From Domibacillus indicus (lineage in GTDB: Bacteria; Bacillota; Bacilli; Bacillales; Domibacillaceae), in NCBI RefSeq assembly GCF_023715895.1, contig NZ_JAMBOO010000024.1, positions 1 to 62,136 of the forward strand: a DNA stretch of 62,136 nucleotides, given 5' to 3'. The position numbers and the translations under genes were made by a program. The first letter of the stretch is position 1, and every line of letters starts with the position of its first letter. Below the pieces are notes generated by a model. That model saw nothing but the letters and a program-made list of their open reading frames with translations, was not told the origin of the DNA and did not search any database. Shown in pieces: positions 7,545-57,945 of this stretch.

Positions 7545-8135
7545 CTATGATGACGTTCCTTTATCAAATAACGATTTTCCACGTGCGTAGCGACGCTCTA
7601 CGCTGATTCGGCTTCTATTGAGCTTTTTGGCAATCTCATCAAAACTCCATCCATCTTCTCTCCATTTTAAAAGGAGTTCAACTTCTTTTGTTGTCCAGCG
7701 TGTATAAGTCTTTATTGTTTTACCTGCAGGAGTCTTGCGGGCTTCCTCTACCCAATCCGGCTCAGGAGGCAGGGCATGTTTTTCAAGGAGACTGAAATCG
7801 ATTTTCTCCTGATTGTGTTTTGCCCAGTTCCAAAAAGAATGGACATCAATGAGGTGAAACTTTCGTTTGCAGCGTGTTATACGTGATATGGCTTCCAGTC
7901 CATAAAACTGAATCCAATTGTATATGGTTTTTCTGTCCACATTCAAGGCTTCAGCCAGCTCACTCCCGGTTAAAAGACCTGTAGCGTGTTTAGTATTCCC
8001 GAGACCCATTCTCTTTAATTTCAATGATACTGCTGTCTCACTTCGATCAAGTTGTCTGGCGATGGCAGATAGGGAGCAGTTACCCACACGCTTTTGCAGA
8101 AAATAAAGGTCTTTTTCTGTCCACTTTTTTCCCAT
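7545..8135 (-). CDS. multi-HTH DNA-binding protein under c-di-GMP riboswitch
   Basis: A 196-aa protein with three DNA-binding-like parts: an N-terminal Myb/SANT-like helix-turn-helix (KWTEKDLYFLQK...LSAIARQL, residues 4-45), a central HTH (LTGSELAEALNVDRKTIYNWI, near 55-75) and a C-terminal Myb-like repeat (RWTTKEVELLLKW...FDEIAKKLNRSRISV, near 146-183). It is probably a transcription regulator or nucleoid-type protein; targets are unknown. The ATG is 2 bp from the stop of the upstream gene, so the two are translated from one mRNA whose leader carries a c-di-GMP-I riboswitch. Similar proteins in mobile elements of Bacillus are possible relatives. Confidence 0.8.
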   Translation of the reverse strand: MGKKWTEKDLYFLQKRVGNCSLSAIARQLDRSETAVSLKLKRMGLGNTKHATGLLTGSELAEALNVDRKTIYNWIQFYGLEAISRITRCKRKFHLIDVHSFWNWAKHNQEKIDFSLLEKHALPPEPDWVEEARKTPAGKTIKTYTRWTTKEVELLLKWREDGWSFDEIAKKLNRSRISVERRYARGKSLFDKGTSS

Positions 8136-8137
8136 AT

Positions 8138-8461
8138 TTATCGCTCTCCCCTTTTACATTCGTAAATAGGCTGGAGGCAGCTTGCTGCTTGTTGAGGTTT
8201 TACAGATACAACACTCAGAAAAGAGAAAAGGGGATCATCTTCTGTACATTTCCTCAACAAACGAAATATATTGGGTTCATGTTCTTTTAGCAATGTCATA
8301 CATTCAATAAAAGGCAGCCCATCTTCTTGGTCATTTTCTCTTTTGAAAGAGTGTAAGAATTGTACAAATACTAAGGTTGAATCAAAATCATTTAGATAGT
8401 TTTGCAACAACAAAAAAGACTTCCCAGTGTTCCTTTTTAATTCAGTTATTTTTCCTCGCAT
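8138..8461 (-). CDS. unrecognised protein, first gene of riboswitch operon
   Basis: A 107-aa protein, probably cytoplasmic, largely helical, with an acidic middle and a Cys-containing C-terminus. No family was recognised. It has a good AAGGTGGGA site and lies 57 bp downstream of the c-di-GMP-I aptamer. Tight spacing to the multi-HTH gene suggests the two act together. Confidence 0.7.
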   Translation of the reverse strand: MRGKITELKRNTGKSFLLLQNYLNDFDSTLVFVQFLHSFKRENDQEDGLPFIECMTLLKEHEPNIFRLLRKCTEDDPLFSFLSVVSVKPQQAASCLQPIYECKRGER

Positions 8462-8517
8462 TTTCCAATCCCACCTTAAGTAGTTATTGGCCCAAATACG
8501 GAGTAAAAACTCTTATT

Positions 8518-8596
8518 TGGCAACCCGGCTGTCATAATCCTTAAGGATCGTAGACCCGTGGCTTTGCGTCCTTCCCTTTCGAAAAGTTTGCCTTTA
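8518..8596 (-). promoter_or_regulatory. class I c-di-GMP riboswitch (GEMM-I)
   Basis: Read on the minus strand, the aptamer shows AAAGGCAAAC, a stem capped by TCGAAAGG (GAAA tetraloop), AAGGACGCAAAGCC, ACGGGTCTA, a second stem around CCTTAAGG, and the closing GACAGCCGGGTTGCC. These are the conserved GEMM-I landmarks. It is the leader of the 8461-7545 operon. No clear terminator follows, so translational control or weak antitermination is possible. Confidence 0.88.
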
Positions 8597-8745
8597 TCAT
8601 TATCAATCAATTAAATCATGTCGGAATATTTCCAGTCATTGGTGTCTTTACTTGTCTCACTCTATAGGGTCAGTCCCTATTCATTATCACGAACCTCATT
8701 CTTATTTATTTAACATCTTATTGATAAAATATATAATCATAAAAA

Positions 8746-9039: not shown

Positions 9040-10251
9040 CTAATACTTAAAAGGTTTTTTATTCAATATAACGTCTTGTGTTTTGGAAATAAGGGACTGG
9101 TTAAGTGGTAAAATAACCTCCACAATGGTTCCCTGATTGACAATAATTTCTAAGTGGATGGTTCCACCATGTTCTTCGATAATTTTGTGGCTGATCATTA
9201 AACCTATTCCCGTGCCTTTTTCTCTTAGGCCGTAAAATGGTTCACCTATACTTTTCATTCGTTCCTCAGAAATACCATAACCTTGATCAATAAACCTAAA
9301 CTTGATACGGTCAGATCCATGCTTCATTGTTTGAATTTTGATGACTCCTCCATTTAACGTGGCTTCCACAGCGTTTTGAAGAATATGGATAAAAACCCGT
9401 TTGATTTGATGCTCATCACAATGGAGAGCTGGCAGTTCGGCATCTGTTTTCTTTACGATTTGAGTATTTTTCAGTGCAGCTTGTGTACTGACTAATGTCA
9501 TTACATCATCTAAAAGAATGTTTAGATCAGTTGAAGTCACTTTACTTATTTGCGGCTTAACAAATGCTAAAAATTCATTGACAACTTTTTCTACATTGCT
9601 GATTTCAGACAACATAATATCTGTATACCCAGGATTATTTAATTCATCCTGCATTAATTGAAGAAAACCTTTTAATGCAGTAAGAGGAGTCCTTATCTCG
9701 TGTGCAACGCCTGCCGCTAACTGACCGGCAACAGCCAGCTTTTCTGTTTTTTGTATAAATTTCTCTGTCTTTTTTCGCTCCGAAATGTCTCTTGCTACTA
9801 CAATAATACGTTCTATTTCTCCATTTTCACCAAGTACAGGCGTTTTTTTTGATTCCATATAAACCCACTCGCCATCCGCATCTGTCATTCGGAATTCGAA
9901 TTGGCTGGGTTTTTGAGTCGATATCATGTGAAGAAATTGTTTTTGACTATCAGAAATATCATCAGGATGAACCCTGTCAAAAATCGATTTCCCTTCGTAA
10001 AACTCTGGCGGATTTCCCAGTACCGTTTTATGCGAAGGGGAAGCATAGAGAATGGTTCCATCCACATTTAAAACACTTATTAAATCCTCCATATTATCTG
10101 TAATAAGACGATAATTGGCTTCACTCCGTTTTAGGGCTTCTTCAACCTGTTTTCTTTCGGTGATGTCAATACAAGAACCAATAACCAATAACCTCCACCA
10201 CTTGTCCGCCTCTTCGGATGGGGCGTAAGGAGGCAGCATAATAGATGCCAT
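9040..10251 (-). CDS. PAS-histidine kinase half of a split GGDEF-EAL-kinase protein
   Basis: This frame carries a PAS end (GSCIDITERK), a full PAS/PAC domain and a KinE-like kinase: H-box GVAHEIRTPLTALKGF, N-box ILQNAVEA, G1 DQGYGIS, G2 GTGIGL. It would autophosphorylate on His and donate phosphate to a response regulator or Spo0F-like protein. Codons before about 10191 are out of frame with the true protein: removing one copy of a 7-bp tandem duplication (10178-10191) joins this frame to the GGDEF-EAL frame upstream in one open frame from 12697 to 9040. On its own it has no convincing start or ribosome site, so as sequenced the kinase may not be made. Confidence 0.8.
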   Translation of the reverse strand: MASIMLPPYAPSEEADKWWRLLVIGSCIDITERKQVEEALKRSEANYRLITDNMEDLISVLNVDGTILYASPSHKTVLGNPPEFYEGKSIFDRVHPDDISDSQKQFLHMISTQKPSQFEFRMTDADGEWVYMESKKTPVLGENGEIERIIVVARDISERKKTEKFIQKTEKLAVAGQLAAGVAHEIRTPLTALKGFLQLMQDELNNPGYTDIMLSEISNVEKVVNEFLAFVKPQISKVTSTDLNILLDDVMTLVSTQAALKNTQIVKKTDAELPALHCDEHQIKRVFIHILQNAVEATLNGGVIKIQTMKHGSDRIKFRFIDQGYGISEERMKSIGEPFYGLREKGTGIGLMISHKIIEEHGGTIHLEIIVNQGTIVEVILPLNQSLISKTQDVILNKKPFKY

Positions 10252-12697
10252 TTACGATTCCCTCGTATGTTACATGCTCCTGCCCATTCCAGGCTTGCTG
10301 GTAATATTCATGCTTTTCTTTCGCACTTTCCAAAGGTAGAAAATCACTTAGTTTCTTACCGGTAATTTGTTCAGGAAGTAAGCCAAGTCGATACAGCAGC
10401 TCTCCATCACATAGGGTGTGAATAAAGGCCCCGTCTTTTTTAACAAACTTAAAAATCATCCCTTGTTGCTGCCGAACCGTATCCACTAACTCTTGGCGGG
10501 CGATTTCTAATGCTTCTTCTGTCCGCATTTGATTGGATACTGCTGTTGGAATACCATTTTGCGGAATAATTTGCTCGATTTCATTAATTTTTCGTTTTAA
10601 TTCTGCTGCTGGCACCGGTTTGCTGAACAAATACCCCTGGGCCTGATTACAAAGATGTCGCTGGAGGAACACCAAATGCTCTTTTGATTCAACGCCTTCA
10701 GCCACAACATTCATTTTTAACTGATGAGCCATCGCGATAATGGTTTTCGTAATAGCCGCATCATTTGGATCTGCTGTACAGTTACGAACGAATGACTGGT
10801 CAATTTTCAGTTTATCGATGGGAAGCATTTTTAAGTAATGAAGGGAGCTATAGCCTGTGCCAAAGTCATCCATACTGATTTGGACACCGATCTTTTTTAG
10901 TTCCTCTAAAATTTTAAGCCCCTGCTGCATGTCCATTAACATGCTTTCAGTAATCTCAAGCTCAAGATACTCGGGAGAAAGTTTTGTCTCTTTTAAAATC
11001 TCTTTGATCATTGCAATTAAATCAGGCTGATACAGCTGGCGGACAGAGAGATTGACCGATATTACCATAGGAGGCAGTCCCGCTTCCTGCCAGGCCTTAT
11101 TTTGTGCGCATGCCGTGTATAAAGCCCATTCACCAATCGGAATAATAAGCCCTGTTTCCTCCGCAAGAGGGATAAATGTCGCTGGAGAAACCAGCCCTTT
11201 TTCCGGGTGCTGCCAGCGTAATAGTGCTTCTGCTCCAGCCACTTTACCTGAAGATAAATCTACCTTAGGCTGATAATATAAAAGCAGTTCCTTTTGTTTC
11301 AGTGCTTTTCGAAGATCGGTTTCTATCTCCCATTTTTCATACGTGTATTCTGCTTTACCAGAATCATAGAATCGATAATGATTTTTCCCTGTCCGTTTCA
11401 CTTGATGGAGGGCTAAATCAGCTTTTTTTATTAATGTATCGACATCCTTGCCATCGTATGGATAAAAGCTGATGCCAATGCTCGCTGTTGTATATAGCTC
11501 ATACTGATCGACATGAAAAGGCTCCGTAAAGCTGTCCAAAATATGCCTCGCCACTGCGGCCACTTCTTCTCGCCTCATATTACAGAGAGAAACAAGAAAT
11601 TCATCACTGCCGTTTCGCGCCACATCTCCCTCAATATCCATACAGCTTTTTAACCTGTCTGATACCTTCTGTATTAAGCGGTCGCCTGTTTCCTGCCCCA
11701 GTGATTCATTAAAAACCTTAAAACGGTCTAAATCGATACTAAGAACAGCTACATTCTTGGTTGTTTCCTGAGACAAATGATTTTTTAAACGATTATAAAA
11801 TTGATACCGATTGGACAGTCCCGTTAAGTCGTCGTGATAAGCCAGATATTTAATTTTTTCTTCTGCTTTTTTCCTTGCAGTGATATCAAGAAGGGTTCCT
11901 GTTATGGCAGGCTTCCCTTTATAGGTTGTCTTAGATCCAAGCACTTCCATATGAAGCACCGTTTGGTCTTTTTTTATAGCCCGATATTGATAGTGAACAT
12001 TTGAAAACCCCTCTTCCATCCGCTTTCTCAGATTGTCATTTACGATCATTCGATCTTCCGGATGGATAAAATTCAGCACATTCGATCCAATTAGTCCTTC
12101 CCTTGTGTAACCGAGCATTTCAGCCATTTTTTGATTCACATACATAATGATGTCATCTTGAATAATATAAATACCAACTACAGATTCCTCTGCCAGGTTC
12201 CGATAGTGAGACTCGGCTTCTGTTAGAGCCGCCTGTGTTTGATTAAGAACAGTAATATCTTTATGAATTCCATATACGCCAACAATTTGATCATTGACTA
12301 TGATGGGTATATTCGTGACCCTTATTTCAAAAATTTCACCATTTTTGCCATATATAGCAGTCTCATAGGTTATTGATTTTCCCTCTGCAGCTGTTTGGAA
12401 ATGTTCTAAGGTCTTCTCTAGCTGGTCTGGCACAACGTAAGGAATAAAAGATTGATGCAGCATTTCTTCTGGTGTATAACCATAGTGCTCTATGGTTGTA
12501 TTCATGCTTAAAAAGTTTCCTTCTAGATCAAACGTTATAACCAAATCTGGATTCTGCTCATAAAGAGACTGGTAGTGCTGTTCATTTTTTTTAAGATCCA
12601 ACAGTTTCCCTGCCCATTTTTTCTGAATACGGGCTTGAAGAAAGATAATAATTAACAGAATCAAGATTACAACACCAAAACCAATCGTCGATTCCAT
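10166..12697 (-). CDS. membrane PAS-PAS-GGDEF-EAL-PAS protein (split from kinase)
   Basis: 843 aa. One N-terminal membrane helix (residues 5-23), two PAS/PAC domains (about 45-275), a GGDEF domain with the degenerate signature RNGSDEF near 364, an EAL domain and part of a third PAS. The EAL residues look complete: EALLR near 489, ELEITES, MDDFGTGYSSL, VAEGVES. Phosphodiesterase activity on c-di-GMP is therefore likely; cyclase activity is doubtful, although GTP binding may remain. The frame ends early (VIGYWFLY stop) because of a 7-bp tandem duplication. ATG 12697 has a GGGGGTG site; ATG 12736 has none. A c-di-GMP-I riboswitch and terminator precede it, implying feedback control. Confidence 0.88.
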   Translation of the reverse strand: MESTIGFGVVILILLIIIFLQARIQKKWAGKLLDLKKNEQHYQSLYEQNPDLVITFDLEGNFLSMNTTIEHYGYTPEEMLHQSFIPYVVPDQLEKTLEHFQTAAEGKSITYETAIYGKNGEIFEIRVTNIPIIVNDQIVGVYGIHKDITVLNQTQAALTEAESHYRNLAEESVVGIYIIQDDIIMYVNQKMAEMLGYTREGLIGSNVLNFIHPEDRMIVNDNLRKRMEEGFSNVHYQYRAIKKDQTVLHMEVLGSKTTYKGKPAITGTLLDITARKKAEEKIKYLAYHDDLTGLSNRYQFYNRLKNHLSQETTKNVAVLSIDLDRFKVFNESLGQETGDRLIQKVSDRLKSCMDIEGDVARNGSDEFLVSLCNMRREEVAAVARHILDSFTEPFHVDQYELYTTASIGISFYPYDGKDVDTLIKKADLALHQVKRTGKNHYRFYDSGKAEYTYEKWEIETDLRKALKQKELLLYYQPKVDLSSGKVAGAEALLRWQHPEKGLVSPATFIPLAEETGLIIPIGEWALYTACAQNKAWQEAGLPPMVISVNLSVRQLYQPDLIAMIKEILKETKLSPEYLELEITESMLMDMQQGLKILEELKKIGVQISMDDFGTGYSSLHYLKMLPIDKLKIDQSFVRNCTADPNDAAITKTIIAMAHQLKMNVVAEGVESKEHLVFLQRHLCNQAQGYLFSKPVPAAELKRKINEIEQIIPQNGIPTAVSNQMRTEEALEIARQELVDTVRQQQGMIFKFVKKDGAFIHTLCDGELLYRLGLLPEQITGKKLSDFLPLESAKEKHEYYQQAWNGQEHVTYEGIVNGIYYAASLRPIRRGGQVVEVIGYWFLY
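10178..10191. repeat. 7-bp tandem duplication that breaks the reading frame
   Basis: CCAATAA occurs twice in direct succession. With one copy the minus-strand frame reads VEVIGSCIDITERK, a normal PAC-domain end, and the whole gene 12697-9040 stays open (3651 nt, 1217 codons). Confidence 0.85.
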
Positions 12698-12751: not shown

Positions 12752-12787
12752 TTAAAAAAGACTAAACGAATACCGATTAGTCTTTTT
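12752..12787 (-). terminator. riboswitch expression-platform terminator
   Basis: On the minus strand AAAAAGACTAA pairs perfectly with TTAGTCTTTTT, giving a stem followed by a T-run. It lies between the c-di-GMP-I aptamer and the GGDEF-EAL start, as expected for transcriptional control. Confidence 0.8.
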
Positions 12788-12795
12788 AATATCGT

Positions 12796-12870
12796 CGGTA
12801 ACTGGCTGGCATAATCCGCAGATTTTAGCCCCTATAGTTTTGCGTCTTTACCTCTCGATAAATTTGCCGT
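12796..12870 (-). promoter_or_regulatory. class I c-di-GMP riboswitch (GEMM-I), divergent
   Basis: On the minus strand: ACGGCAAATT, a stem with a GAGA tetraloop (TCGAGAGG), AAAGACGCAAAACTATAGGGGCTAAAA, a second stem, then GCCAGCCAGTTACCG. The core GACGCAAA and the two-stem layout fit GEMM-I, with some changes from consensus. It controls the GGDEF-EAL gene 100 bp downstream. Confidence 0.82.
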
Positions 12871-13022
12871 TGTAACTTTTATTCAATTATTCCACAACAT
12901 ATAAACGAAACTGTTTATTTTAAAAGAGGAAAGTATTATATCTACATATGCTAAAGTCTCTTTCTCTTCGTCTCTCTTAAAATAACAGCTAAACCTATGA
13001 TATAAGGTTTTCGTTTTCATTT

Positions 13023-15617: not shown

Positions 15618-16961
15618 GAGAGCGTAAAATATTTTGTGTAAATGAGTAAATAGAAAAAGGAAGACCTTTTCTTGTAGAATTGAATCACCACAACACAATT
15701 CACAGAAAAGAGGTCTTCCCTATGAATCAGTTTACAACAGATATCGTCGACGCTCTAGTAAAAAAACAAGACATTACGGAAGTATTTCGTTTACACCTTG
15801 AAAAAGCGGTTAATTCACTGCTTGCAGCCGAATTAACGGCGTTTTTAGATTACGAGAAATACAACCGGATTGGCTTTAACTCAGGCAATTCCCGCAATGG
15901 TGCCTATTCCCGCACGCTGCACACCGAATATGGGGATCTCCAGCTAACGATCTCGCGTGACCGCAATGGAGAATTTAAACAACAGACCATCGCACCTTAC
16001 CGGCGCTCCAATGACACGCTCGAATCGTTTGTCATCCACTTGTTTCAAAAAGGCGTCACGATGACCGAAATCTCCGATTTGATTGAGAAGATGTATGGCC
16101 ATCATTACACACCGCAGACAGTTTCCAACATGGCCAAAGCGATGACGGGACAGATTGAAGCCTTTATCCGCCGTCCTCTTAGTGCCCGATATGTCTGTGT
16201 ATATTTGGATGCCACCTACATTGCCGTTAAGCGTGAAACGGTTTCGAAAGAAGCCGTCTACCTGGCGGTCGGTATCCGGGAAGACGGGTCAAAAGAAGTC
16301 CTTGCCTACACAATCGCTCCCACAGGGTCGGCATTTGTCTGGAAAGAGCTGCTTCTTGATATCAAGGAAAGAGGCGCAGGCGAAGTGCTTTTGTTTATTT
16401 CTGATGGCCTGCAAGGCATCACGGACAGTATCTTCCATGTCTATCCCCATGCTCAGTATCAGACATGTCTTGTCCATCTTGCCCGCACCATTGCCCATAA
16501 AGTCCGTGTTTCAGACCGGGCTGAAATCTGCGGGGACTTCAAAGCCGTCTATCGCGCTGAGAGTGCCGAAGAGGGACAACAGGCACTGGAAGCCTTCTGT
16601 TCCAAATGGCAGGCGGTTTATCCAAAGGTGACGAAGTCACTGGCTGAAAACCCGTATATCTTTACGTTTTACGGCTTCCCAAAATCTATTTGGCGCAGCC
16701 TTTATTTAACGAACCTGATCGAATCGTTCAATAAACAGATCAAGAAATACACGAAGCGCAAAGAGCAGTTTCCAAACGAAGAAGCGCTGGAGCGCTTTCT
16801 TGTTTCACAATTTGAGGATTACAACCAGCGCTTCGCTGTCCGCTGCCATATTGGTTTTGACCAGGCCCGTGCGGAGCTCGCAGCCGTGTTTAAAACCACT
16901 GATTAAATGACAGTCTGCAAGAAAAGGGATTCGTCATTTACACAAAATTATTGACGGTCCC
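15618..16961 (+). mobile_element. complete IS256-family insertion sequence
   Basis: About 1344 bp, bounded by imperfect terminal inverted repeats of about 28 bp: left GAGAGCGTAAAATATTTTGTG and right, inverted, GGGACCGTCAATAATTTTGTG. A convincing 8-bp target duplication is not visible, so the flanks may have recombined with the second copy at the window start. Confidence 0.9.
15722..16906 (+). CDS. IS256-family transposase
   Basis: A 394-aa mutator-type DDE transposase. The catalytic triad is visible as YLDATYIAVK, FISDGLQGI and LIESFNKQIKK. The family hallmarks YQTCLVHLAR and W-R-S-L-Y-L-T-N are present. ATG 15722 is preferred because it follows the GAGGT site and matches the family N-terminus MNQFTTDIV. 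Full length, so probably active. Confidence 0.95.
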   Translation: MNQFTTDIVDALVKKQDITEVFRLHLEKAVNSLLAAELTAFLDYEKYNRIGFNSGNSRNGAYSRTLHTEYGDLQLTISRDRNGEFKQQTIAPYRRSNDTLESFVIHLFQKGVTMTEISDLIEKMYGHHYTPQTVSNMAKAMTGQIEAFIRRPLSARYVCVYLDATYIAVKRETVSKEAVYLAVGIREDGSKEVLAYTIAPTGSAFVWKELLLDIKERGAGEVLLFISDGLQGITDSIFHVYPHAQYQTCLVHLARTIAHKVRVSDRAEICGDFKAVYRAESAEEGQQALEAFCSKWQAVYPKVTKSLAENPYIFTFYGFPKSIWRSLYLTNLIESFNKQIKKYTKRKEQFPNEEALERFLVSQFEDYNQRFAVRCHIGFDQARAELAAVFKTTD

Positions 16962-22517: not shown

Positions 22518-23795
22518 TTACACTGACACTCCAAGACAGTGGAGATCTTGCATCATATATCTTGCATCGAAAAGAACTCTCTTCTTGCAAATACCGTGTA
22601 ATATCTTGAGTAATTTACTACATAGCACAACCATTGACTGTTTTCCCCGCAGGGGGTTAAGTGGCCGGGTTGTGTAATATTCATGAAGCTGTTTAAACGC
22701 CTTGTTATGCCGAATCAGTGGGACTATCACTTTGAAGAGAACCATCCTCAATCTCTTCCTGCCGCGCTTGGAGATATGTTTTTGGCCCTTGTGCTGTCCG
22801 GATGAAGTTTCACGCAATGTTAATCCCGCTAGTTTGATGAGTTGGCGTGGATTTTCATAGAGTGAAAAGCTTCCTACTTCCGAAAGCAGATCGACAATTG
22901 TGGCATCCCCTAATCCGGGAACAGAGCTAAGGAGTTCGTATTCTTGAGTCGCTTTCGTCATTTCAGCTAATTGACTGTTTAGACTCTCGATCTCTCCTTC
23001 CAACAACCGGTATTGGCGCAAGAGTGTGGCGATTTCATGTCGGGCCATCTGTAACCCTTCCGTCAGTCCGATCGAACTCGTGGCTGCTTCTACCAGAAGC
23101 TCCGCTTTTGGCAATTGTGGTGCCCTCATTCCCTCTACCTGCCGGTAGAGAAAGACGATCTCTTCAGCTGTTTTTCCTTCAATATCCTGTGGAAGAGGTG
23201 TCATCTGAAGTGCTGCAAGCGCCATCTTTCCGAAAGCCGGATAGACTTGCGTAAACTCTGGAAAATAACGGTCAAGCCAACGGATAATCCGGTTTTTGAT
23301 ACTCGCTAAATCCTCTGTCAGCTTTGAACGTAGTGTAGAACCGATACGCAGTTCAGCCTCGACCTCCTTGAGGAAACGGGGATAGCTAAAGCGGCCGTCT
23401 TTCATTAATCTGGCAATGACCAGTGCATCTTTCTTATCGTTCTTGGTTGGAAGATTATCATCCAATTCCTTGGAACGTTTGACGTGCAATGGATTCACCA
23501 TGACAAGCGGTATCTCATATTGGTGCAGAAAATAGGCCAAGTTCATCCAGTAGTGTCCTGTCGGTTCAATTCCGACGATTACTTCCGTTTTCTTAGTCTC
23601 CTTCATTGCTTGGCGAATCTTTTGATAGAGCGCTTCAAAGCCTTTCTTTGACTGATGTACCGCAAAGGCTTTTTCAATTACACGTCCACGTTCGTCCACA
23701 AAGCAGGCGTAATGCACGCTTTTGGCAATATCCATGCCGATGACGAGAGTGTTTTCCGTGACTTGATTAAGTTTTTCATTCGCTATAGAATTCAT
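22518..23795 (-). CDS. IS110-family transposase (type 1)
   Basis: A 425-aa DEDD transposase: GMDIAKSVH near residue 20, VGIEPTGHYW near 76 and KNDKKDALVIARL near 118 give the RuvC-like acidic residues. The C-terminal Tnp20-like domain includes SSVPGLGDATIVDLLSEVG. ATG 23795 has a perfect GGAGG site; upstream in-frame codons add 27 residues without one. It is clearly different from the 411-aa type at 24163 and 39839. Element ends were not determined; IS110 elements lack simple terminal repeats. Confidence 0.93.
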   Translation of the reverse strand: MNSIANEKLNQVTENTLVIGMDIAKSVHYACFVDERGRVIEKAFAVHQSKKGFEALYQKIRQAMKETKKTEVIVGIEPTGHYWMNLAYFLHQYEIPLVMVNPLHVKRSKELDDNLPTKNDKKDALVIARLMKDGRFSYPRFLKEVEAELRIGSTLRSKLTEDLASIKNRIIRWLDRYFPEFTQVYPAFGKMALAALQMTPLPQDIEGKTAEEIVFLYRQVEGMRAPQLPKAELLVEAATSSIGLTEGLQMARHEIATLLRQYRLLEGEIESLNSQLAEMTKATQEYELLSSVPGLGDATIVDLLSEVGSFSLYENPRQLIKLAGLTLRETSSGQHKGQKHISKRGRKRLRMVLFKVIVPLIRHNKAFKQLHEYYTTRPLNPLRGKQSMVVLCSKLLKILHGICKKRVLFDARYMMQDLHCLGVSV

Positions 23796-23929
23796 AGAGG
23801 AGTCCTCCTTGTTTGATGATGGGTCAATTGGTCGTTGACACTCATGCATCATACTAGAGGGCTCTTTTTCTTTCAAGATGGCGCAAATCCTTCTAACAGG
23901 AATGCTGCTTCGTTCGTATTATAAGGTCA

Positions 23930-24162: not shown

Positions 24163-25398
24163 ATGAATCCAGTCGTCGGTCTGGATATATCGAAAGGGGA
24201 AAGTCAGGTTCAAGCCTTTCTAGATAAAGGTAAGCCATACAGTAAGAGCTTTAAAGTAAATCACACTCTTGAGGGCCTTCGTTCACTTGTATCGTTTCTT
24301 GAGAATGTAAAGCAAGAAGCTGGGAAGAAACCTTCAGTAATATTAGAGGCTACTGGGCATTATCAAACTCCAGTCGTTCAATACTTGGAAGAACGAGGCT
24401 ATTTATTGGTTATCATCAATCCATTGATCTCCTATAAGGCAAGAGGATCAAGTTTGAGAAAAGTAAAGACAGATGCCATTGATTCCTATCTCCTCTGTGA
24501 GTTGTTTTATAAAGAGGAATTAGAACCGTATAAAAAGCGTGGAGTTCAGTTATTGAACCTTCGGAATCTCACAAGACAACACGAAAACATCACCGGCGTG
24601 ATGGTTCAAACAAAACTTCAATTTCAAGCAGTGCTTGAACAAGTGTTTCCTGAATATAAAGGGGTTTTTGGAGATTTATATTCTGTGGTCTCACTTTCAA
24701 CTCTTTCAGTGTTTCCTTCCTCAGAAGACATTTTGAGGACGAGCGAAGAAGACATTACAGACAGAATAGTTGAGTTATGTAAGAGTAGATCAATCAACTG
24801 GGCAAATGAAAAAGCCATTCAACTTAAAGCTGCGGCAGCACGCAATCCCTTTGAAAAGACCATCTATCAGAGCCATATTCTAAGCCTTGGTATGTATATA
24901 AATATTCTTCTTCAGTACAAAGAACATCTATCAAAGTTAGAAGCAGAGATAGATGCCCTCGCTAAAGAAATAGAAGAATATAGTATCATCAAATCTATCC
25001 CAGGCATCGGAGAAAAGATCGCAGCAACGATTATTTCTGAGATTGGTGAGATTGATCGATTTAGCCATCCTAAAAAGCTTGTAGCCTTCGCTGGAGTGGA
25101 TCCTAGTGTATTCGAGTCTGGCAAGTTTACTGCCACTAAAAACCAGATCACAAAGCGAGGATCGAGCAGACTTCGTCACGCCTTATATATGGCCGTTCGT
25201 TGTGCCATTCGTGATTGCCGGAAGAAGAAAACAACAGATGAAATCATCCCCCGCAACAAAAGAATGCGGGAATTTTACGACAAGAAACGCGAAGAAGGAA
25301 AACCTTTTAAAGTAGCTGTGATTGCTTGTGTGAATAAGCTCTTACATTGGATTTATGCCCTATTAAAAAACAATACGACTTTCCAAGATATAGCCTAA
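24163..25398 (+). CDS. IS110-family transposase (type 2), copy 1
   Basis: 411 aa. DEDD residues: VVGLDISKGESQ, VILEATGHYQ and KTDAIDSYLL; C-terminal Tnp20 domain with SIPGIGEKIAATIISEIG and KRGSSRLRHALYMA. Good GGAGGAG site. It differs from copy 2 mainly after about codon 140: the first 400 bp are nearly identical, the rest has many synonymous and some replacement changes. Confidence 0.95.
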   Translation: MNPVVGLDISKGESQVQAFLDKGKPYSKSFKVNHTLEGLRSLVSFLENVKQEAGKKPSVILEATGHYQTPVVQYLEERGYLLVIINPLISYKARGSSLRKVKTDAIDSYLLCELFYKEELEPYKKRGVQLLNLRNLTRQHENITGVMVQTKLQFQAVLEQVFPEYKGVFGDLYSVVSLSTLSVFPSSEDILRTSEEDITDRIVELCKSRSINWANEKAIQLKAAAARNPFEKTIYQSHILSLGMYINILLQYKEHLSKLEAEIDALAKEIEEYSIIKSIPGIGEKIAATIISEIGEIDRFSHPKKLVAFAGVDPSVFESGKFTATKNQITKRGSSRLRHALYMAVRCAIRDCRKKKTTDEIIPRNKRMREFYDKKREEGKPFKVAVIACVNKLLHWIYALLKNNTTFQDIA

Positions 25399-39838: not shown

Positions 39839-41074
39839 ATGAATCCAGTCGTCGGTCTGGATATATCGAAAGGGGAAAGTCAGGTTCAAGCCTTTCTAGA
39901 TAAAGGTAAGCCATACAGTAAGAGCTTTAAAGTAAATCACACTCTTGAGGGCCTTCGTTCACTTGTATCGTTTCTTGAGAATGTAAAGCAAGAAGCTGGG
40001 AAGAAACCTTCAGTAATATTAGAGGCTACTGGGCATTATCAAACTCCAGTCGTTCAATACTTGGAAGAACGAGGCTATTTATTGGTTATCATCAATCCAT
40101 TGATCTCCTATAAGGCAAGAGGATCAAGTTTGAGAAAAGTAAAGACAGATGCCATTGATGCCTACCTCCTCTGTGAGTTGTTTTATAAAGAGGAATTAGA
40201 ACCTTATAAAAAGCGTGGAGTTCAGTTATTGAACCTTCGGAATCTTACAAGACAACACGAAAATATAACTGGAGTCATGATTCAGACAAAGCTTCAATTT
40301 CAAGCAGTGCTTGAACAGGTGTTTCCTGAATATAAAGGGGTCTTTGGCGATTTATATTCGGTTGTTTCACTCTTAACTCTTTCAGAGTTCCCTTCTTCCG
40401 AGGATATTTTGAGAGCCAGTGAAGAAACAATTACAGACAAGATATTTGGATTATGTAAAAGTCGATCAATCAGATGGGCAAAAGAAAAAGCTGTTCAGCT
40501 TAAAGCTGCGGCAGCCCGTAATCCTTTTGAAAAAACAGTGTACCAAAGTTATATATTAAGTCTTCGTATGTATATTAATATTCTTCTTCAATACAAAGAA
40601 CATCTATCAAAGTTAGAGTCAGAAATAGATGCCCTCGCTAAGGAAATTGAAGAATATAATATCATCAAATCTATCCCTGGTATTGGAGAAAAGATCGCTG
40701 CAACGATCATTTCTGAAATTGGAGAGATAGATCGATTTACTGATCCTAAAAAGCTGGTAGCTTTCGCTGGAGTTGATCCTAGTGTATTTGAATCCGGTAA
40801 GTTTACAGCCACTAAAAACCGAATCACTAAAAGAGGGTCAAGCAGGCTTCGGCACGCCTTATACATGGCAGTTCGTTGTGCAATTCGTGACTGCCGTAAG
40901 ATCAAAACAAGCGATGAAATCATTCCTCGTAATAAGAAATTACGGGAGTTCTATGATAAAAAACGTGAAGAAGGAAAACCCTTTAAAGTAGCCGTTATTG
41001 CGTGTGTAAATAAACTCTTACATTGGATATTTGCCCTTTTAAAGAACAGAACAACTTTCCAGGATATAGCTTAA
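39839..41074 (+). CDS. IS110-family transposase (type 2), copy 2
   Basis: 411 aa, intact. DEDD landmarks VVGLDISKGESQ, VILEATGHYQ and KTDAIDAYLL, and the C-terminal SIPGIGEKIAATIISEIG. This copy has the usual Ala after the last Asp (DAIDAYLL), where copy 1 has Ser. Confidence 0.95.
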   Translation: MNPVVGLDISKGESQVQAFLDKGKPYSKSFKVNHTLEGLRSLVSFLENVKQEAGKKPSVILEATGHYQTPVVQYLEERGYLLVIINPLISYKARGSSLRKVKTDAIDAYLLCELFYKEELEPYKKRGVQLLNLRNLTRQHENITGVMIQTKLQFQAVLEQVFPEYKGVFGDLYSVVSLLTLSEFPSSEDILRASEETITDKIFGLCKSRSIRWAKEKAVQLKAAAARNPFEKTVYQSYILSLRMYINILLQYKEHLSKLESEIDALAKEIEEYNIIKSIPGIGEKIAATIISEIGEIDRFTDPKKLVAFAGVDPSVFESGKFTATKNRITKRGSSRLRHALYMAVRCAIRDCRKIKTSDEIIPRNKKLREFYDKKREEGKPFKVAVIACVNKLLHWIFALLKNRTTFQDIA

Positions 41075-50915: not shown

Positions 50916-53900
50916 ATGATAAGGCGCTATCATGTGGTGGCCATTCCGATCCGCATTGTCGTCAACAATTTTGGCGACCATAACCCGGATGGACGAATGT
51001 ACGTGTTAAAAGAAAACGAGGCAAAGGTAAAAGAATTGGTCCGTAAAAATCCCTTTACCCCGGTAGAACTCATAGAGCCGCTGACCATTAGAGCCAATGA
51101 AGGAGACACAGTTGAGATTCTGTTTGAAAATCAGCTTCCTTTTGCAGCAGGCATGCATTTTCAGGATCTTGATTATAACGTGCTAACCTCAGACGGAGCC
51201 AACGTTGGCTTTAACCCAAGCTCACTGGCTGAATGCGGTGAAAAGCTTCTTTACAAGCTGGATGCTACGTATGAAGGAATTTGTTTTTTCACTGATGTCG
51301 GCAATGTATCAAGCACCGAAGAGGGATCCAGCATCCAAGGCCTTTTCGGTACATTGCTCGTTGAAAGAAGAGGTTCCTGGTGGACCGATCCTGTCACAGG
51401 CGGACCGATCAACAGTGGTGTTTTCGCAGATGTCCATCACCCTTTTCTTCCCTCCTTCCGTGAGTATGCATGGTTTTTCCATGATGAAATGGAAGTGGAT
51501 GATTTAACGGGCAACCGGCCGCTTAACCCGATGACCAATCAGGAAAGTGAATCCTTTCACGGTTTGAACTATCGATATGAACCACTTCATAACCGCCTGA
51601 AATTGATTGAAGAAGGCGTCGTATCTCCCGAGCTTGAAGGCGAGGAAGTTCATCATGACTCCTGGGTATTTGGCGACCCTGCCACACCGATTTTGCGTGG
51701 CTATCGGGACGATCCTGCCGTTGTCCGCCTGATTCATGCAGGCTCAAAAGAAACACATGTGTTCCACTATCATGTGCATCAATGGCTTAGAGATCCTGGA
51801 AACATTAATTCAGAGATTGTGGATGCGCAGGCAATCAGCCCGCAGTCTCACTATAGTGTTCAGCCTTTATACGGGCTTGGCAGCATGCAGGGGGCAATTG
51901 GGGATGTGATTATTCATTGCCACCTCTACCCGCATTTTGAAGCCGGCATGTGGGGGATAAACCGTATCTTTGACACCCTCCAGGACGGCAGTCAATGCTA
52001 TCCAAACGGCACCCCGATTGCCCCGCTTCAGCCGCTGCCGGACCGTCCCTGCCCGCCGTGTCCAACAAAAGAAAAACCAGGGTTTCCTAACTTTATCCCC
52101 GGTAAGGTTGGCTGCAAAGCGCCGAGACCGCCGCTTGGCATTGTTGGCGGACGGGGCATGACGGAACTCGAAAAAAATGCCGCCGTACCGAATGCAAGAC
52201 CAGGGGCCGTTTTTGCTGATTCCTGTCTGGGAAATCCGGTTGTCCTGGAATTTAACGTGTCCGTGATTGATCTTCCGCTTGTTTATAACAAACAGGGCTG
52301 GAACGATCCAAAAGGAAGAATTTATGTAAAAGATGAAGATATTGAGGATGTGCTGTCCGGAAAAAAAGAGCCGGAACCGTTAGTCCTGCATGTGCCAGCC
52401 GGTTCTTGTGTCAGGATAAACTTCACAAACCGGCTGTCTCATATTCTGGATGGAGATGCCTTTCAGCTGGTCACACGAACCTATGAGGTGGGCTTTCATG
52501 TCCATTTTGTAAAGTTTGATGTTCTTGTGTCTGATGGTGCAAATGTAGGCTGGAACTATGACAGTGCCATTTTGCCGGGTGAGACTGGCCGGTATGAATG
52601 GTATGCGGACACCGAATTAAAAGCTTTTTTCTTTCACGATCACCTGTTTCCCGTTTCTCATCAGCAGCATGGGATTTTTGGTTCGTGTGTCATCCAGCCT
52701 CGATTTTCTACATTTTTGGATTCAAGAACGGGTGAGGAAACAGATCATGGTACACAGGTTACTGTTGCCCATCCTCTTATTCCGGATTACCGCGACTTTG
52801 CGTTATTTGTCCAGGATTTCGCCTTGCTGTTTGACAAAGACGGCTGTCCCATTCAGCCACCGCAATTTCCAGGTTCTTTGGAGGACCCCGGTATTTTTGC
52901 GGTCAATTATAAAAATGAACCGCTGCAATTCCGGCTTGGGAAAGACTGTGATCCAGCCTATTCCTTCAGCTCCTATGTGAATGGAGACCCCGTTACCCCT
53001 ATTCTGCGGGCGTATGAAGGAGATTCCATCCGTATCCGGCTGCTGCAGGGAGCTCATGAAGAATCCCACAGTTTTAATGTGCATGGACTAAAATGGAAAT
53101 CAGAACGGCCCAGCAACGATGCACAGATCCGTTCGCAGCAGCATATCGGCATTTCAGAGTCATTTACATTTGAAATGGATATTCCAAGAGCAGGGGATTA
53201 TTTGTGGGCTTTTGAAACAGAAGAAGATATCTGGAACGGCACATGGGGACTTATTCGCGCTTATGACCAGGAAGTGGAGCATCTCATTCCTTTGCCTGAC
53301 CGGCTTTTGCCGGAGCCAAGAACAAAACCGCTGCCCGAAGTAACCGGAAAGCCGCCGGCTCTAGCCGATCCACAGTCTACCCTGCCGCCTGAAGCACCAC
53401 ATAATCCGCCGGTTCGAAAGTATAGTATTGTTGCGTTTCAAACACCTATCGTATACAACTCGTTTGGAGACCATGATCCGTATGGAATCGTGTTTGCTTT
53501 AGAAGAAGATGTTGAGGACATTCTTCGCGGCAAGAAAAAGCCAGATCCGCTTGTGCTTAGAGGAAACGCTGGTGATCTTCTAGAAGTCACGCTGACGAGC
53601 CGTCTGAAACCTGATTTATTCCCATTCCCTGATGGCATTCATCCTTATCCGCCAGTAAAAGAACAGGCCTTTTATCCGCCGTCTCTGCGTATTTCCCTGC
53701 ACGTCAATATGCTTGATTATGATGTGACCACTTCAAGCGGTGATACGGTCGGATTCAATCCTGATCAAACAGTGGGACCTGGTGAAACCATTACGTACCG
53801 CTGGCATGTACAGGATGCCATGGGTACCTGTGCCATGTGGGATATGGCCGACTTACGGAATCACCGCTCCTTTGGAACGTTCGGTGCTTTTATTGCGGAG

Positions 53901-54566
53901 CCGCGGTTTACAACATACCACAACCCTTATACGCTGGAACCTGTCCGAACAGGCACAAATGTGGTGCTCAGGAACCCGTTTGGCAGTGAATACAGAGAAT
54001 TTGTTTTGGTTATGCATGACGGTGTTCGTTTAGAAGATAAGCACGGCAAAGTGATTATCGATCCACTGGACGGCGTCATTCCAGAACCTGATCCTGAAGA
54101 CGATGAAGTAGACACCTATGATTTCGGGTCACGCGGCTTCAACTATCGGACAGAGCGGTTAATTAACCGTTTTAGAAAATATCCAGTTTTAGGTGACTTA
54201 TTTAGCTCAAAGGTTCACGGTGATCCGGCCACACCTGTTTTCGAAGCATATCCAGGTGATCCTGTCGTTATTCGGCTCACTACTCCATCAGAACGCAGAA
54301 GAGCCCATACATTTCATCTGCACGGCCATAATTGGAAATTTGACCCGAGAGATATTGAATCCCGTATTGATTCATACACCGGTCATATGGTTGCCGGTGT
54401 CACAGAAGACCTGCTTTTAATTGGCGGTGCTGGAGGAACGTATAACTATCCAGGGGATTATATGTACCGGGCCGGCAACATTCGCTGGGATATCGAGCAG
54501 GGCATGTGGGGGATTATTCGGGTCCATGATAAAATCCAGCCTCATTTACCTTCACTAGATAAATGA
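50916..54566 (+). CDS. mnxG: MnxG-like giant multicopper oxidase
   Basis: 1216 aa, the size of Mn(II)-oxidising MnxG of marine Bacillus spores, with repeated cupredoxin domains (each restarts with a V-V-x-N-x-x-G-D-H-D/N-P-x-G type element, at about residues 20, 450 and 850). Copper-binding motifs: FHYHVHQW near 283, HCHLYPHFEAGMW near 332, FFHDHLFPV near 572, HSFNVHGLKW near 718 and HTFHLHGHNW near 1131. MnxG oxidises Mn(II) to Mn(IV) oxide on spores; here that is inferred from similarity. AAGGAGGG site. It directly follows the frameshifted small gene. No mnxA-D genes are seen. Confidence 0.88.
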   Translation: MIRRYHVVAIPIRIVVNNFGDHNPDGRMYVLKENEAKVKELVRKNPFTPVELIEPLTIRANEGDTVEILFENQLPFAAGMHFQDLDYNVLTSDGANVGFNPSSLAECGEKLLYKLDATYEGICFFTDVGNVSSTEEGSSIQGLFGTLLVERRGSWWTDPVTGGPINSGVFADVHHPFLPSFREYAWFFHDEMEVDDLTGNRPLNPMTNQESESFHGLNYRYEPLHNRLKLIEEGVVSPELEGEEVHHDSWVFGDPATPILRGYRDDPAVVRLIHAGSKETHVFHYHVHQWLRDPGNINSEIVDAQAISPQSHYSVQPLYGLGSMQGAIGDVIIHCHLYPHFEAGMWGINRIFDTLQDGSQCYPNGTPIAPLQPLPDRPCPPCPTKEKPGFPNFIPGKVGCKAPRPPLGIVGGRGMTELEKNAAVPNARPGAVFADSCLGNPVVLEFNVSVIDLPLVYNKQGWNDPKGRIYVKDEDIEDVLSGKKEPEPLVLHVPAGSCVRINFTNRLSHILDGDAFQLVTRTYEVGFHVHFVKFDVLVSDGANVGWNYDSAILPGETGRYEWYADTELKAFFFHDHLFPVSHQQHGIFGSCVIQPRFSTFLDSRTGEETDHGTQVTVAHPLIPDYRDFALFVQDFALLFDKDGCPIQPPQFPGSLEDPGIFAVNYKNEPLQFRLGKDCDPAYSFSSYVNGDPVTPILRAYEGDSIRIRLLQGAHEESHSFNVHGLKWKSERPSNDAQIRSQQHIGISESFTFEMDIPRAGDYLWAFETEEDIWNGTWGLIRAYDQEVEHLIPLPDRLLPEPRTKPLPEVTGKPPALADPQSTLPPEAPHNPPVRKYSIVAFQTPIVYNSFGDHDPYGIVFALEEDVEDILRGKKKPDPLVLRGNAGDLLEVTLTSRLKPDLFPFPDGIHPYPPVKEQAFYPPSLRISLHVNMLDYDVTTSSGDTVGFNPDQTVGPGETITYRWHVQDAMGTCAMWDMADLRNHRSFGTFGAFIAEPRFTTYHNPYTLEPVRTGTNVVLRNPFGSEYREFVLVMHDGVRLEDKHGKVIIDPLDGVIPEPDPEDDEVDTYDFGSRGFNYRTERLINRFRKYPVLGDLFSSKVHGDPATPVFEAYPGDPVVIRLTTPSERRRAHTFHLHGHNWKFDPRDIESRIDSYTGHMVAGVTEDLLLIGGAGGTYNYPGDYMYRAGNIRWDIEQGMWGIIRVHDKIQPHLPSLDK

Positions 54567-57170: not shown

Positions 57171-57288
57171 GAGTTACTACATTTACTTTTTTTACCTAAA
57201 ATGTAATCATTTTTTATATTTAAATTTCGTCACATTTGAAAATTTCGTAATATAATTGTAATAATATATTTTTTAAAATTTTAAAAAG

Positions 57289-57364
57289 ATAAAGGCAAAC
57301 CATTCAAAAGATTGGGACGCAAAGCTACAGGTCTAAGGTTTTAAACTATGATGGCTGGGTTGCA
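57289..57364 (+). promoter_or_regulatory. class I c-di-GMP riboswitch (GEMM-I)
   Basis: Aptamer landmarks in order: AAAGGCAAACC, stem ATTC-AAAAG-ATTGGG, GGGACGCAAAGCTACAGGTC and TAAGG, a second stem, then GATGGCTGGGTTGC. It ends only 7 nt before the AGGAG site of the L,D-transpeptidase gene, so control of translation is likely. A TATAAT lies at 57251-57256. Confidence 0.92.
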
Positions 57365-57390
57365 AAATCATAGGAGTGGTATATTTGTTG

Positions 57391-57945
57391 ATGAAAAAGT
57401 TATTCAAAAACCTATTTGTAGTATTAACGTCATTAGCACTGGGCATAAGTATTCTAGCCACGAAAGCGGAAGCTAGTAATGAAAAAAACAATGACCTTAT
57501 CATAGTCAACAAAGCTTATAATAAGATGGTGTTTATTAACGATGGGTTTATTGAAATGGTTGCACCAGTAGGGACAGGCCGCACATGGGATCTCACCCCT
57601 GTCGGGCAGTTTAAAGTGGTGAATATGGTCAAAAATAGACCTTATTACAAAAAAAATATCGCTGGTGGTTCACCAAATAATCCTCTTGGCGCACGATGGA
57701 TTGGCTTCAGTGTACCGGGAAATTGGGGAACAGAAACAGGAAATGTATTTGCACTCCACGGAACCAATCAACCGGCCTCTATTGGTGGTTACGTTAGTTC
57801 TGGATGTATCAGAATGTATAACAGCGATATTATTAAGCTATATGATAAAGTCGCTAATGGAACACCCGTGACAATTACTTATTCATACAAATCATTTCAA
57901 GCATTGGCAAAAATGTATGGCTATTCGATAAAAGGTTTTAGGTAA
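57391..57945 (+). CDS. secreted L,D-transpeptidase (YkuD domain)
   Basis: 184 aa. Signal peptide about residues 1-28 (MKKLFKNLFVVLTSLALGIS, cleavage after AEA). The YkuD catalytic signature is HGTNQPASIGGYVSSGCIRM with His and Cys as catalytic residues. It makes 3-3 cross-links or attaches proteins in peptidoglycan outside the membrane. Starts at TTG 57385 (8 nt from AGGAG) or ATG 57391 are both possible. Expression is under the c-di-GMP-I riboswitch directly upstream, linking wall modification to c-di-GMP. It has its own terminator at 57950. Confidence 0.92.
   Translation: MKKLFKNLFVVLTSLALGISILATKAEASNEKNNDLIIVNKAYNKMVFINDGFIEMVAPVGTGRTWDLTPVGQFKVVNMVKNRPYYKKNIAGGSPNNPLGARWIGFSVPGNWGTETGNVFALHGTNQPASIGGYVSSGCIRMYNSDIIKLYDKVANGTPVTITYSYKSFQALAKMYGYSIKGFR

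What the first reader, a model, noticed from the sequence alone, without database searches (positions are those of the whole stretch)
9040..12697. A 7-bp tandem duplication splits a GGDEF-EAL/histidine-kinase fusion
Seen: CCAATAA occurs twice in a row at 10178-10191. With one copy, one frame stays open from 12697 to 9040 (3651 nt, 1217 codons) and joins VEVIG to SCIDITERK, restoring a normal PAC end. The protein would then be TM-PAS-PAS-GGDEF-EAL-PAS-PAS-HisKA-HATPase, a single chain coupling c-di-GMP turnover to a KinE-like kinase. Short tandem duplications revert by slippage, so this may be an on/off switch.
Basis: partly seen in the sequence, partly recalled or inferred. Interest (0 to 1): 0.75.

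Follow-up and report, generated by a model that had tools for sequence, protein, structure and literature searches.

The report
Frameshifted c-di-GMP phosphodiesterase–kinase gene
A bacterium of the genus Domibacillus carries a short accidental DNA duplication that cuts one long signalling gene into two, while its relatives keep the gene whole; this looks like a recent ordinary gene break rather than a built-in on/off switch.

Summary
CCAATAA stands twice at 10178-10191 and separates the 5' frame (12697-10166) from the kinase frame (10251-9040). The genome is a Domibacillus. Seven of 7 close relatives keep one chain. Of 24 end-to-end matches to an EAL-PAS-PAS-HisKA profile, 23 are unbroken; only the window's is in two. 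So the fusion is real and widespread, and the break is private.

The switch idea is not supported, nor excluded. Perfect 7-bp pairs are as common as chance gives (6 against 4.3). Only the window's own 5 of 133 fetched loci hold the array. The slippage substrate is not conserved. Other GGDEF-EAL genes of the genus are broken without such repeats. Both halves still look constrained (dN/dS 0.16 and 0.21), so the break is recent or the pieces still work: a chance start may yield a free kinase.

The parts
10176..10193 (.). period-7 tandem array (CCAATAA twice at 10178-10191) at the frame break
   Evidence: absent from 7 of 7 close relatives (proteins; DNA) and from every fetched locus that is not the window's own
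10166..12697 (-). 5' piece: 843 aa, (TM)-PAS-PAS-GGDEF-EAL-truncated PAS
   Evidence: start at 12697 rather than 12736 by ribosome site
9040..10251 (-). 3' piece: 403 aa, PAS-HisKA-HATPase; its first 22 or so residues are out-of-frame sequence
12251..12559 (-). PAS 1 (residues 47-149 of the 5' piece)
   Evidence: Pfam PAS_4
11882..12208 (-). PAS 2 (residues 164-272)
   Evidence: Pfam PAS
11378..11842 (-). GGDEF domain (residues 286-440), motif GSDEF, probably not an active cyclase
   Evidence: letters; motif reading recalled
10616..11317 (-). EAL domain (residues 461-694) with the usual catalytic signatures
   Evidence: E 5.4e-75; letters; signature list recalled
9784..10116 (-). PAS 4, next to the kinase
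9553..9726 (-). HisKA phospho-acceptor domain (H in AHEIRTP)
9100..9417 (-). HATPase_c domain
10249..10265 (-). possible chance start of the kinase piece: ATG 10251 with CGAGGGAAU upstream (-7.0 kcal/mol; median of 96 ATGs in the region -2.4)
   Evidence: an ATG in the same frame, from Asn-Gly codons, is present in 20 of 21 correctly anchored relatives
12794..12878 (-). c-di-GMP-I riboswitch aptamer upstream of the gene
   Evidence: RF01051, 72.7 bits against a gathering score of 35
12754..12787 (-). terminator hairpin with T run between aptamer and start codon
   Evidence: -12.0 kcal/mol

Best explanation
The locus is a riboswitch-led gene for a single-chain c-di-GMP phosphodiesterase and histidine kinase that was broken recently, in this strain, by a 7-bp tandem duplication, probably made by strand slippage at a short direct repeat (GGTT seven bases apart) such as the relative G010b still shows. 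In intact relatives PAS domains probably sense a signal, the EAL domain probably degrades c-di-GMP (the GGDEF domain is degenerate here), and two further PAS domains pass the state on to an orphan kinase. In this strain that physical link is cut in the last strand of the third PAS domain. The cell makes the 5' enzyme piece and perhaps, from a chance start, a free kinase. Shown: the duplication, the break, the intact relatives, the domains, the riboswitch match. Inferred: slippage as cause, sensing, enzyme activities, loss of coupling, and that this is an ordinary mutation rather than a maintained switch.
For: One unbroken chain in 7 of 7 close relatives and in 23 of 24 end-to-end profile matches, 7 of the 23 being the profile's own rows. 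The array lies in 5 of 133 fetched loci, all five the window's own locus; many of the 133 do not cover this site. GGTTATTGGTT in G010b. dN/dS against G010a 0.16 and 0.21 (NG86), and no excess of window-specific residues (40 against 41; 20 against 14; p 1.0 and 0.39), so no old decay. Of 7 suspicious GGDEF-EAL loci fetched from the genus, 6 are broken (L127-L131, L133; L132 proved intact), and the breaks tested in five of these (L127-L131) have no tandem unit of 7 or more bases within 60 bases. EAL and kinase cores match known enzyme families.
Against: Both halves still look constrained, which also fits a reversible or still-working locus, and I saw no further lesion in either frame. No strain of the same species with an intact allele was found, so the timing is not bracketed closely (dS to G010a 0.3-0.5). 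Activities are inferred from motifs.
Confidence: 0.72

Rival explanations
1. Phase variation: the 7-bp copy number flips between one and two, so that cells alternate between a coupled phosphodiesterase-kinase and two uncoupled parts.
For: Short direct repeats can be excised precisely: the 9-bp repeat of cryptic gudB in B. subtilis is lost at a frequency of about 1e-4 in a rocG mutant (PMC3681913, passages and section 10). Another member of the Firmicutes phase-varies a c-di-GMP phosphodiesterase, though by promoter inversion (PMC9286219, outline and abstract). Both halves remain constrained.
Against: The array is absent from the relatives and the slippage substrate is not conserved: longest period-7 match 2-3 bases in 20 of 21 correctly anchored relatives, 4 in G010b (read). 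Chance gives about 4 such pairs per window. In the gudB study 15 other 9-bp repeats were not seen to change and the cryptic allele was stably inherited while RocG was active.
Confidence: 0.1
2. Working gene fission: the split yields two useful proteins, a membrane phosphodiesterase and a soluble PAS kinase freed from it.
For: ATG 10251 has a ribosome site of -7.0 kcal/mol, beyond the best-tenth mark (-5.8) of 96 ATGs in the region; TTG 10188 has -6.2. Constraint on the kinase piece is unchanged. Truncated c-di-GMP proteins can stay active, as reviewed for ycgG of E. coli (PMC10333796, passages).
Against: An ATG in that frame is a by-product of Asn-Gly codons, present in 20 of 21 correctly anchored intact relatives, so it was not selected as a start. 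The 5' product loses the end of the PAS strand and the signalling helix.
Confidence: 0.15
3. The second copy is an assembly or sequencing error, or a change fixed in laboratory culture.
For: The genome is a draft of 180 contigs; no reads were available and the sequencing platform is unknown.
Against: A clean 7-bp duplication is not a typical short-read error (recalled); the flanking frames are otherwise open.
Confidence: 0.1
4. Programmed +1 frameshifting makes the full chain from this allele.
For: The two frames overlap by 86 bases (10166-10251), leaving room for a shift.
Against: Relatives need no shift, and the duplication accounts for the frame. I did not search for shift sites systematically.
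Confidence: 0.02

Closest known systems
Cryptic gudB of Bacillus subtilis 168 (9-bp direct repeat; PMC3681913, passages and section 10 read)
   Same: A gene inactivated by a short perfect tandem duplication that relatives lack, excisable in principle.
   Different: gudB has an in-frame 9-bp repeat; here 7 bp shift the frame. Reversion is measured for gudB and unknown here.
GGDEF-EAL phosphodiesterases (NCBIfam DibA, PRK10060, DosP; PDB 5m3c, 4rnh)
   Same: PAS-GGDEF-EAL with EAL signatures.
   Different: DibA, PRK10060 and DosP models stay under their cut-offs; in the intact family a PAS-PAS-kinase follows in the same chain.
Orphan sporulation-type kinases (KinB, KinD) and ZraS/AtoS
   Same: PAS-HisKA-HATPase core; no response regulator among 30 other window proteins scanned, of 63 ORFs of at least 100 aa.
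   Different: Fused behind a c-di-GMP enzyme; phosphate target unknown.
HK-GGDEF combination GSU3350 of Geobacter sulfurreducens (PMC1183210, passages)
   Same: Kinase and c-di-GMP domain in one chain, noted in 2005.
   Different: Other phylum; the passage mentions no EAL.
Class I c-di-GMP riboswitches of Clostridioides difficile (PMC6200980, passages)
   Same: Same aptamer class; there class I elements mostly act as off switches, one of them by transcript termination.
   Different: Here in front of a phosphodiesterase-kinase; sign untested.

Membership tests
Phase-variable (slipped-strand) contingency locus | repeat unit not a multiple of 3 inside the coding frame | tested here: met
   7-bp unit at 10178-10191 at the frame break
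Phase-variable (slipped-strand) contingency locus | tract kept in orthologs | tested here: not met
   of 21 correctly anchored relatives 20 have a longest period-7 match of 2-3 bases; L120 has an unrelated 7-bp pair in an intact frame; G010b has 4 bases; L118 was misanchored and not read by hand; the exact array is in no locus but the window's own
Phase-variable (slipped-strand) contingency locus | copy number varies among clones or strains | not testable with these tools
   no reads; the one same-species genome lacks the gene
Single-chain GGDEF-EAL-PAS-PAS-histidine kinase | all domains in one open frame | tested here: not met
   window in two frames; 23 of 24 comparable places in one. By motif, 22 of those 23 have an EAL-type signature (not L119), 23 an H-box, and 20 a GGDEF-type motif (not L108, L116, L119)
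EAL phosphodiesterase | EAL domain with catalytic signatures | tested here: met
   Pfam EAL 5.4e-75; signature letters (motif list recalled)
EAL phosphodiesterase | hydrolyses c-di-GMP | not testable with these tools
   needs an assay
Diguanylate cyclase | intact GG(D/E)EF motif | tested here: inconclusive
   GSDEF in the window and G010a; SGDEF or GGDEF in most others; none by motif in 3
Sporulation kinase KinA-E | curated family model reached | tested here: not met
   KinD model 156.2 bits against a cut-off of 775 for the 3' piece; the intact relatives tested, L054 and L107, also stay below it
Sporulation kinase KinA-E | phosphorylates Spo0F | not testable with these tools
   needs an assay
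c-di-GMP-I riboswitch | covariance model above gathering score, with an expression platform | tested here: met
   72.7 bits against 35; terminator hairpin

The most novel reading that the evidence does not exclude
A riboswitch-controlled phosphodiesterase-kinase whose two halves are coupled or uncoupled at random by gain and loss of a 7-bp unit, so that a population mixes cells in which c-di-GMP turnover does or does not steer an orphan, sporulation-type kinase.
Probability: 0.06. Interest if true: 0.7.

Novelty: new member of a known kind. Interest (0 to 1): 0.3.

Why it matters
The break itself is an ordinary recent gene lesion. What deserves attention is the intact family behind it: c-di-GMP phosphodiesterase domains and an orphan histidine kinase in one chain, with end-to-end matches under 13 genus labels of the order and in 8 of 24 cases placed behind a c-di-GMP riboswitch. 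The messenger could then control the synthesis of a protein that both degrades it and feeds a kinase. That circuit is directly testable. The window's strain is a natural uncoupled variant of it.

Tried and rejected
Rejected: that the tandem pair is statistically remarkable by itself. Rejected: that orthologs are normally two genes; the one other split that I opened, on a Cohnella herbarum plasmid (L126), lies at another point, shows no GGDEF match and has a further stop inside the kinase match. Rejected: old pseudogene. Not settled: the direction of the riboswitch; leader folds show a terminator in 7 of 8 leaders (weak in G007), but I did not resolve an antiterminator. In one search two of 23 rows (G010b, L118) were anchored on a wrong DVT motif and are left out of the site comparison; G010b was read by hand, L118 was not. 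The printed DNA alignment was cut before G009. In one search only 5 candidates per genome were scored, and the limit was E 1e-60, so weaker or split relatives can have been missed. My notebook lists L132 as broken; one search shows it intact, and the report follows. The AlphaFold model has low overall confidence (mean pLDDT 67, pTM 0.34) and is used only for the PAS domain at residues 61-156 (about 80). Foldseek gave only general PAS-kinase matches with low TM-scores to the query. The paper searches listed no description of this fusion in Bacillales that I recognised; only some listed papers were opened, so this is weak evidence of absence. Searches on short-duplication phase variation gave nothing closer than gudB.
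Full report
What is there. The window is contig C98 (62,136 bases) of a 5.08-Mb draft genome in 180 contigs. That is the basis for calling the window Domibacillus, a genus of Bacillaceae. On the minus strand an 843-residue frame runs from ATG 12697 to a stop at 10166-10168, and a 403-residue frame from ATG 10251 to 9040. The first holds two PAS domains, GGDEF and EAL; the second PAS, HisKA and HATPase. CCAATAA stands twice at 10178-10191, within an 18-nt period-7 array, just where the frames change.

Is the break real? Seven close relatives (three genes in G010, one each in G006, G007, G004 and G009) are single chains of 1220-1306 residues that align across the junction without extra residues; their DNA there lacks the second copy. 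A profile of the stretch from the end of EAL to the kinase's histidine, built from those seven, was run on 24 genomes of the family and 397 of the order (5 candidates scored per genome). End-to-end matches: 23 places under 13 genus labels, all without internal stop, 7 of them the model's own rows. The window is the only place whose match is divided (positions 1-153 and 150-321). The limit was E 1e-60, so weaker split relatives could be missed. On plasmids, 10 records matched the kinase piece at that limit. Of the four I opened, three hold single chains and one, Cohnella herbarum, is broken elsewhere.

Chance and cause. Six perfect 7-bp tandem pairs lie in the window, against a mean of 4.3 (sd 2.1) in 30 second-order Markov sequences, so a 7-bp pair alone means little. 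The relative G010b reads GGTTATTGGTT at this spot: a 4-base direct repeat 7 bases apart, a plausible slippage substrate. In the 21 other correctly anchored relatives the longest period-7 match is 2-3 bases in 20, and 7 in L120, where the pair sits in an intact frame.

Age and constraint. Against G010a, dN/dS is 0.16 for the 5' piece and 0.21 for the 3' piece (NG86; 0.22 and 0.22 by YN00). With G010b as outgroup the window has 40 unique residues to G010a's 41 in the 5' piece, and 20 to 14 in the 3' piece (p 1.0 and 0.39). There is no sign of decay: the break is young, or the parts still work. The window's genome has no other match to the profile at E 1e-60. The same-species genome G006 lacks this locus, with only paralogous or flanking matches, but has a more distant intact chain (47-51% identity).

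Why I do not call it a switch. The array is not kept in relatives, two copies is a minimal tract, and no strain comparison or read data exist. Broken GGDEF-EAL genes are not rare in the genus: of 7 loci fetched because they looked suspicious, 6 show frame changes or internal stops (L127-L131 and L133) and one, L132, proved intact. L127 and L128 seem to be the same locus in two genomes. In the five tested there (L127-L131) no tandem unit of 7 or more bases lies within 60 bases of the break. The best precedent, gudB, loses a 9-bp repeat at about 1e-4 in a rocG mutant, but the study ascribes this to growth under selection; the cryptic allele is otherwise stably inherited and 15 other repeats stayed unchanged (PMC3681913, passages and section 10). 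Variation by truncation of c-di-GMP proteins within species is described in a review (PMC10333796, passages).

What the break does. In a model of the intact region from relatives, residues 61-156 form a PAS-like fold and the break point lies in its last strand, before a long helix to the next PAS. The kinase piece could be translated on its own: ATG 10251 has a ribosome site of -7.0 kcal/mol (median of 96 ATGs in the region -2.4, best tenth -5.8). An ATG in that frame comes from Asn-Gly codons and occurs in 20 of 21 correctly anchored intact relatives, though not in G010b, so it is an accident, perhaps a useful one.

A c-di-GMP-I riboswitch (RF01051, 72.7 bits) lies at 12794-12878 on the same strand, with a terminator hairpin at 12754-12787 before the start codon. 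Intact relatives G010a, G010b, G004 and G007 have it too (G007 weakly, 40.2 bits), while G006, G009 and the third gene of G010 do not. Among the 16 more distant loci, L111, L121 and, as the GGC variant RF03167, L117 have one directly upstream; the one in L116 faces the other way. That makes 8 of 24 genes, the window's included. In C. difficile class I elements mostly act as off switches (PMC6200980, passages). If that held here, high c-di-GMP would shut off a phosphodiesterase, a positive feedback loop; the sign is untested.

Function. The EAL part carries the usual catalytic signatures (letters; motif list recalled), while the GGDEF motif is GSDEF in the window and G010a. The best-scoring NCBIfam models for the 5' piece are phosphodiesterases, none at its cut-off, and the nearest solved structures are GGDEF-EAL proteins. 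The kinase core is nearest ZraS, ThkA and KinB. No response regulator was found among 30 other window proteins scanned, of 63 ORFs of at least 100 residues. The likeliest intact function is a c-di-GMP phosphodiesterase linked to an orphan kinase; the target is unknown.

Verdict. Observation confirmed; fusion supported; switch not supported but not excluded. The break is an ordinary recent lesion; the riboswitch-led phosphodiesterase-kinase family is the more interesting object.

Noticed in passing
window 8516-8602 (-): A second c-di-GMP-I riboswitch (94.7 bits) upstream of two small ORFs (8138-8461, not scanned, and 7545-8135, HTH-like); the stretch is 92% identical in G010, which has a riboswitch there too (L054 3275-3361).
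   Followed up: partly
window 57284-57367 (+): A third c-di-GMP-I riboswitch directly before an L,D-transpeptidase (YkuD) gene at 57376-57945.
   Followed up: no
L127 (G006) and L128 (window's genome, contig C126): What seems to be one further GGDEF-EAL locus is broken in both genomes of this species, differently in each.
   Followed up: partly
L126 2879-5412, Cohnella herbarum plasmid NZ_CP051681.1: EAL and PAS-kinase annotated as two overlapping genes, an independent break of the same architecture.
   Followed up: partly
L054 3689-12171 (G010): Two intact phosphodiesterase-kinase genes stand in tandem, each behind its own c-di-GMP riboswitch.
   Followed up: partly
window 15680-16906, 22518-23876, 24163-25398, 39839-41074: Mutator-type and IS110-type transposases; together with patchy matches to G006 and G010 the contig looks like a mosaic accessory region.
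   Followed up: partly
window 50916-54566 (+): A 1216-residue protein with HxH-type motifs resembling multicopper oxidases (by eye only); three similar stretches in G010 and two in G006 at 82-89% DNA identity.
   Followed up: no
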